A stretch of DNA of 39,177 nucleotides, from contig JACQAC010000120.1 of NCBI GenBank assembly GCA_016195245.1, positions 1 through 39,177 of the forward strand. Direction: 5' to 3'. The notes below the pieces were generated by a model that made no database searches, was not told where the DNA came from, and saw only the letters and a program-made list of their open reading frames with translations. A program made the translations under genes and the position numbers. This document shows positions 16,296 through 17,061 of the stretch, one piece after another. Position 1 is the first letter of the stretch; each line of letters starts with the position of its first letter. Source of the DNA: Pseudomonadota bacterium. Its GTDB lineage: Bacteria; Pseudomonadota; Alphaproteobacteria; Caulobacterales; Aquidulcibacteraceae.

Positions 16296-16371
16296 GGGCC
16301 CTTAGCTCAGCTGGGAGAGCGCCTGCATGGCATGCAGGAGGTCAGCGGTTCGATCCCGCTAGGGTCCACCA
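16296..16371 (+). tRNA. tRNA-Ala (anticodon GGC), CCA encoded
   Basis: GGGCCCTTAGCTCAGCTGGGAGAGCGCCTGCATGGCATGCAGGAGGTCAGCGGTTCGATCCCGCTAGGGTCCACCA; anticodon loop ATGGCAT between CCTGC/GCAGG stems. Confidence 0.96.
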
Positions 16372-16374
16372 ACA

Positions 16375-16900
16375 TTTCTGTAGTGGCAACGCGACTCGAT
16401 GTGATCGCAGCAAAGGATGCGCAAACGGCAAGGCCGAATTCCTGCTGCGTCCATTACTGGCTGAAAAGCCCTTAGTGTGCATTGCCAAGAACGCATCCAT
16501 GGTGTGAAGCGCGCAGCAGCTCCACTCCCATTCCTTCGTTGGGAAGAATGTCCTCGTGGGCAACAAATGCGGCAACGCAATGCGCCTCAGGGATGTGCGC
16601 AGCCGCATCGCCCTATCCTTGTCGGCGGAGACGTGGCTGATGAACAGTCGATCCTTTTTTGTCCCTTCCCAATGTTTCAGGGGAAGGGATACGCCGGAAA
16701 CGATCGCCGCCGCGTTCATGTTCAAGTCGCCAGCAATGCGCCGCACAGCGTCAAGCGGTTCGCCGGCCAAGATGCTCTTCGCATAAACCCACTTACTGGA
16801 AAACCGCCTCTGTGTTGGAGACGAGTATCCCAAACGAACGCAAGGAGGCATTTAGTTCGTAGGTTTGAAGCGGCTTTGAGGCTCGCGGGCGATGCGGTCG
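16375..16900 (-). pseudogene. Multiply frameshifted TIR-domain protein gene
   Basis: Pieces in different minus-strand frames assemble in order: YELNASLRSFGILVSNTEAVF / SSKWVYAKSILAGEPLDAVRRIAGDLNMNAAAIVSGVSLPLKHWEGTKKDRLFISHVSADKDRAMRLRTSL / VAAFVAHEDI / FPTKEWE / ELLRA / LHTMDAFLAMHTKGFSASN / WTQQEFGLAV. Confidence 0.8.
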
Positions 16901-17061
16901 ATAGGCTCGAAGCGCTCTGATTGCTTCATGCGATCTTCCAGAATCATACAGCGATGAGCGGGCGTGCGTTCGACTCACTCGGCTGGATCAGCCAGATCAG
17001 TAGAACCGGGTCGCGACAACAATGTCTAAGCCAAACTGGAGCGCGGAATGATCGTTCGGCG

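What the first reader, a model, noticed from the sequence alone, without database searches (positions are those of the whole stretch)
16375..16900. Decayed TIR-domain gene abutting the 3' end of tRNA-Ala(GGC)
Minus-strand pieces in different frames line up collinearly as a TIR protein: FLR-like SFGILVSN...SKWVYAKSIL, RLFISHVSADKDRA, AAFVAHEDI, PTKEWE, LHTMDAFLAMHTKGFS.SN, WTQQEFGLAV. At least four frame changes are needed, and the gene ends just short of the tRNA 3' end. TIR proteins are common in bacterial immunity and tRNA 3' ends are common integration sites, so this may be the remnant of an integrated defence module. Residue motifs are well preserved despite the frame changes, suggesting recent decay.
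Basis: partly seen in the sequence, partly recalled or inferred. Interest (0 to 1): 0.6.

Follow-up and report, generated by a model that had tools for sequence, protein, structure and literature searches.

The report
Decayed TIR immune gene at tRNA-Ala
A broken, tail-less copy of a bacterial TIR-type immune gene sits beside a tRNA gene that marks a hotspot of variable DNA; its intact relatives in many phyla end in a short tail that copies the tail of the DNA-replication protein SSB, a feature of which I found no published account.

Summary
Observation confirmed and extended. The minus strand at 16929-16424 is a pseudogene of a TIR protein. A frameshift-aware alignment to an intact 242-aa Hyphomonadaceae relative gives 102/171 identities across five frameshifts (score 462; 30 shuffles reach at most 66). 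The start codon survives, but about 71 C-terminal codons are gone; homology stops 52 bp from the tRNA. Protein change is not accelerated, so decay looks recent.

The integration idea is partly supported. In 20 relatives the genes before this tRNA-Ala are conserved, those after its 3' end almost never shared. Four carry serine-recombinase genes there, three more have fragments. The window has no recombinase and no attachment repeat.

Following the family outward gave the most interesting result. 26 of 40 relatives end in an SSB-like acidic tip (e.g. DDEIPF), against 0 of 491 neighbouring ORFs; 21 of 24 match their host's SSB at the variable third-last residue. Two archaeal members lack both host SSB and tip. 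In the window copy this part is lost, so its former tip is inferred. Likely mechanism of intact members: an NAD-consuming TIR effector docked on the DNA-maintenance machinery by SSB mimicry. This is untested, and the tree-controlled test of the host match was underpowered.

The parts
16424..16929 (-). TIR-family pseudogene as a whole: start codon to about residue 171 of 242; five frameshifts, 3' end deleted
   Evidence: frameshift-aware alignment to the L037 protein; profile hit E 4.5e-29
16867..16929 (-). piece 1: start codon and first helix (MKQSERFEPIDRIAREPQSRF)
16825..16864 (-). piece 2, other frame: second helix (TYELNASLRSFGI)
   Evidence: the stretch down to 16798 is poorly conserved
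16591..16797 (-). piece 3: end of N-terminal domain and start of TIR (SKWVYAK ... RLFISHVSADKDRAMRLRTS)
16547..16590 (-). piece 4, other frame: EAHCVAAFVAHEDI
16457..16542 (-). piece 5: PTKEWE ... LHTMDAFLAMHTKGFSAS (part of the middle is out of frame)
16424..16453 (-). piece 6, other frame: WTQQEFGLAV, with the conserved TIR glutamate codon at 16439-16441; homology ends here
   Evidence: glutamate invariant in relatives
16372..16423 (.). 52 bp between the end of TIR homology and the tRNA; too short for the missing ~71 codons
16296..16371 (+). tRNA-Ala(GGC), boundary of variable DNA in the genus

Best explanation
The locus is a recently decayed, 3'-truncated copy of a stand-alone TIR immune gene, lying at a tRNA-Ala(GGC) 3' end that is a hotspot of variable and partly mobile DNA in this genus. 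Shown: homology, frameshifts, loss of the 3' end, hotspot behaviour in relatives. Intact members of its clade have an N-terminal helical domain, a TIR domain with an invariant glutamate in W-x-x-Q-E, and a C-terminus that in about two thirds of the wider family is a disordered acidic tip copying that of bacterial SSB. Inferred: the TIR domain consumes NAD+ when infection is sensed (abortive infection), and the tip docks the protein on SSB-binding partners (such as RecO, RecQ, ExoI, PriA or HolC) so that it watches or acts at replication and repair sites. The window copy has lost the end of the TIR domain and any tip and should be inactive.
For: Alignment 102/171 identities, score 462 against at most 66. 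TIR_2 over its cut-off. 41 related loci, best 61% identity. Tree puts the window copy beside L037 (88/80) in a 7-row clade (97/96). Tip in 26/40 relatives against 0/491 other ORFs, variable linker before it. Host SSB match at -3: 20/22 pairs, permutation mean 9.6, 0 of 20,000 reach it; with two more SSB ends read 21/24, within-architecture p 0.0009. Archaeal hosts of L051 and L070 have no SSB-family match and those TIRs have no tip. The [DE][DE]IPF-stop motif is otherwise found about once per proteobacterial genome. Model: helices, TIR, low-confidence tail 234-241; fold matches are TIR structures, many of them NADases. Hotspot.
Against: No element boundary, recombinase or attachment repeat in the window. 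The tip cannot be seen in the window copy. 14 of 40 relatives lack it, though one of these, L039, is itself frameshifted. The tree-controlled test of the host match has only 3 supported pairs and cannot reach significance. Relatives were found through short exact peptide patterns, which may bias the sample. NADase activity, defence and partner binding are untested.
Confidence: 0.8

Rival explanations
1. The gene is functional in the organism and the frameshifts are sequencing or assembly errors in this metagenome-assembled genome.
For: All disruptions are small indels without nonsense substitutions or excess amino-acid change.
Against: Long neighbouring genes are open (aroA 451 aa, gltB 1519 aa, gltD 470 aa). 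The indel sites are not long homopolymers. About 71 codons at the 3' end are absent, which small errors cannot explain.
Confidence: 0.08
2. The pseudogene is the surviving piece of a larger mobile element that inserted at the tRNA with a recombinase and has since been deleted.
For: The tRNA 3' end is a sharp boundary of variable content in 20 relatives, with serine recombinases or fragments in seven. The truncation lies only 52 bp from the tRNA.
Against: No attachment repeat, recombinase or fragment of one in the window beyond the tRNA itself; the rest of the downstream side carries ordinary genes such as gltBD. It is compatible with the best explanation and would add to it.
Confidence: 0.4
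3. The SSB-like tips are inherited by common descent alone and have no SSB-related role.
For: The tree-controlled test is underpowered and some clades share both tip and host group.
Against: Tip conserved beside a variable linker; presence changes at least nine times on the tree; host match persists within architectures, p 0.0009; absent in two archaeal hosts that lack SSB.
Confidence: 0.25

Closest known systems
Stand-alone proteins annotated 'toll/interleukin-1 receptor domain-containing protein', e.g. WP_086540592.1 on a Klebsiella plasmid
   Same: Same family: helical N-terminus, TIR domain, SSB-like end ESDDIPF
   Different: The window copy is frameshifted and truncated; no function is published that I found for these
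Thoeris ThsB (TIR sensor)
   Same: TIR domain; weak PADLOC profile matches (E 1.2e-4 for the composite, down to 1.6e-8 for L042)
   Different: Matches cover the TIR part only; no ThsA partner was recognised; ThsB is not known to me to carry an SSB-like tip
AbTir, BtTir, SpbK and other bacterial TIR NADases
   Same: TIR fold, conserved glutamate
   Different: Only weak sequence similarity in the PDB (best E 0.0065); different N-terminal domain; activity untested here
Bacterial SSB
   Same: C-terminal acidic tip, mostly the same -3 residue as in the same genome
   Different: No OB fold; only the last residues are alike

Membership tests
Pfam TIR_2 (PF13676) | profile score over the curated cut-off | tested here: met
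   hand-joined composite 34.4 bits against 28; intact relatives 50-52 bits
Pfam TIR_2 (PF13676) | complete TIR domain | tested here: not met
   homology stops at residue 171 of 242, inside the TIR domain; the window copy is a remnant
TIR NADase | catalytic glutamate in W-x-x-x-E | tested here: met
   WTQQE at 16453-16439; invariant in relatives
TIR NADase | NAD+ cleavage | not testable with these tools
   needs an assay of an intact relative
Thoeris | thsA gene beside the TIR gene | tested here: not met
   no thsA-like neighbour recognised among the proteins scanned at the window, L037, L038, L042, L031; not every neighbouring ORF was scanned
SSB-tipped TIR family (described here) | acidic tip ending PF | tested here: inconclusive
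   present in 26/40 relatives including the sister L037; the region is deleted in the window copy
Element integrated at a tRNA | direct repeat of the tRNA 3' end | tested here: not met
   none in the window with up to 3 mismatches; the contig may be too short to hold the far end
Element integrated at a tRNA | recombinase next to the tRNA | tested here: not met
   none in the window, no PF07508 match in G000; present at the same tRNA in G011, G017, G019 and G020
Pseudogene | reading frame disrupted relative to intact homologues | tested here: met
   five frameshifts and a 3' deletion

The most novel reading that the evidence does not exclude
A widespread family of TIR immune effectors carries a host-matched mimic of the SSB C-terminal tip, tethering an NAD-depleting enzyme to the SSB-binding replication and repair machinery, possibly so that phage interference with that machinery triggers it; the window holds a dead member.
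Probability: 0.45. Interest if true: 0.75.

Novelty: new variant of a known kind. Interest (0 to 1): 0.5.

Why it matters
The pseudogene itself is an ordinary relic. The family behind it is less ordinary: how bacterial TIR effectors sense infection is mostly unknown, and an SSB-mimicking tail gives a concrete docking site and a short list of candidate partners that can be tested directly. It would also be a sequence signature for finding immune proteins that watch DNA replication.

Tried and rejected
Attachment repeats of the tRNA 3' end in the window: none. Tyrosine integrases in 30 genus genomes: none of the listed matches lay beside this tRNA, but the list was cut. Phage records: no relative; viral contigs: one, L128, ending TSEAIPF. 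A 33-aa match of the L090 recombinase from the tRNA antisense out to 16408 was set aside: only the tRNA part matches well. Conserved partner gene: none found; L038 follows a type IIG restriction enzyme, others differ. Name for the N-terminal domain: no Pfam match at E 0.1. An NCBIfam scan failed on wrong coordinates and was not repeated. Searches for published SSB-tipped TIR proteins found nothing in the open-access library; most subscription papers are not held there. Intact copies at the same tRNA: none in 20 relatives.

Full report
Observation. A scan of bacterial and archaeal genomes gave 41 loci that encode relatives. The best, L037 from a Hyphomonadaceae genome, has an open frame of 242 residues from its first Met of the matching domain. 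A protein-to-DNA alignment allowing frameshifts matches residues 1-171 of L037 to window 16929-16424 with 102 identities and five frameshifts; it scores 462, while 30 shuffled versions of the DNA reach at most 66. A hand-joined composite passes the Pfam TIR_2 cut-off. Because that composite was made by choosing frames, the independent supports are the shuffled control and the profile of intact relatives, which finds the locus in its own genome at E 4.5e-29.

Extent. The gene starts at ATG 16929. The last ~71 codons are missing: homology stops at 16424 and only 52 bp remain before the tRNA 3' end at 16371. So the gene was truncated as well as frameshifted.

Age and reality of the decay. The aligned pieces hold no in-frame stop codon. 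Differences from L037 fall at codon positions 1/2/3 as 56/41/99. At 76 outgroup-conserved sites the window has 6 private changes and L037 has 5. This fits recent decay. Indels that outrun substitutions could also hint at an assembly error, which cannot be excluded without reads, but neighbouring long genes are open and the 3' loss is not a small indel.

The tRNA. In 20 relatives, the flank before the tRNA is conserved, mostly in the order FMO-SDF-aroA-FYDLN-tRNA-Ala: 85 of 137 ORFs are shared with three or more others. After the tRNA 3' end, none of 136 ORFs is shared that widely, and no window gene from that side is found there. Serine-recombinase genes (PF07508 or PF00239) lie just downstream in G011, G019 and G020, and in G017, where the open frame lacks the N-terminal part; fragments lie in G018, G016 and G007. 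For the window itself no attachment repeat or recombinase was found, so membership in an integrated element is not shown.

The family. Intact relatives of the window's clade have an N-terminal domain without a Pfam name, modelled as four helices, then a TIR domain, a C-terminal helix and a low-confidence end (mean pLDDT 79.5). The fold search matches TIR structures. The glutamate of W-x-x-Q-E is invariant in the alignments. Members are rare: 5 of 398 other genomes drawn from the phylum. One sits directly behind a type IIG restriction enzyme gene (L038) and one on a conjugative Klebsiella plasmid.

The tail. 26 of 40 relatives end in an acidic tip followed by PF, 24 of them in a stricter form, against 0 of 491 other ORFs in the fetched loci. 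One tipless relative, L039, is itself frameshifted. The [DE][DE]IPF-stop motif occurs about once per genome in a draw of 60 from the phylum. Of 20 extra places read in genomes with more than one, several were SSB genes themselves; the others were mainly DUF6511 proteins and a few uncharacterised proteins. SSB was then read from the hosts: the residue at -3 agrees in 20 of 22 pairs (0 of 20,000 permutations reach it), and in 21 of 24 after two more were read, p 0.0009 when permuting within architectures. The architecture groups were assigned by eye. The two archaeal hosts have no SSB-family match and their TIRs have no tip. On a tree, tip presence changes at least nine times; the supported independent-pairs test has three pairs and no power. 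The window genome's own SSB ends LDDEIPF, like the tip of the sister L037 (FDDEIPF). The window copy has lost that part, so its former tip is an inference.

Mechanism. Shown: the pseudogene, its truncation, the hotspot, and the tip in relatives. Inferred from established knowledge of TIR proteins: NAD+ consumption as an abortive response. Inferred and untested: docking on SSB-binding proteins through the tip. No paper describing such tips on TIR proteins was found in the searched library; absence there does not prove novelty.

Verdict. The finding as given is a confirmed but ordinary relic (new member of a known kind on its own). The family feature it led to is a new variant of a known kind, if no earlier description exists, and carries most of the interest score.

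Noticed in passing
L037-L076 (intact relatives): 26 of 40 TIR relatives end in an SSB-like acidic tip that mostly matches the host SSB at the third-last residue.
   Followed up: yes
window 16296-16371; relatives L078-L097 and L189-L208: The tRNA-Ala(GGC) 3' end is a sharp boundary of variable content in the genus, with serine recombinases or fragments beside it in seven of 20 relatives.
   Followed up: yes
L039 624-1276: A second relative of the window copy is also frameshifted, between its N-terminal domain and the TIR domain, and lacks the tip.
   Followed up: partly
L038 2642-6465: The TIR gene overlaps the end of a type IIG restriction enzyme gene, a defence-type setting.
   Followed up: partly
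own genome G000: Eleven TIR_2 matches in an incomplete 3-Mb genome.
   Followed up: no
L169-L174 and L177 (six to seven similar genes, DUF6511 in the two scanned), L180, L188: Other proteins with SSB-like tips in proteobacteria: repeated DUF6511-type genes in one genome and two uncharacterised proteins.
   Followed up: partly
L135 6001-6933 (Klebsiella pneumoniae plasmid): A full-length family member ending ESDDIPF on a conjugative plasmid, about 1 kb from an IS26 transposase gene.
   Followed up: partly
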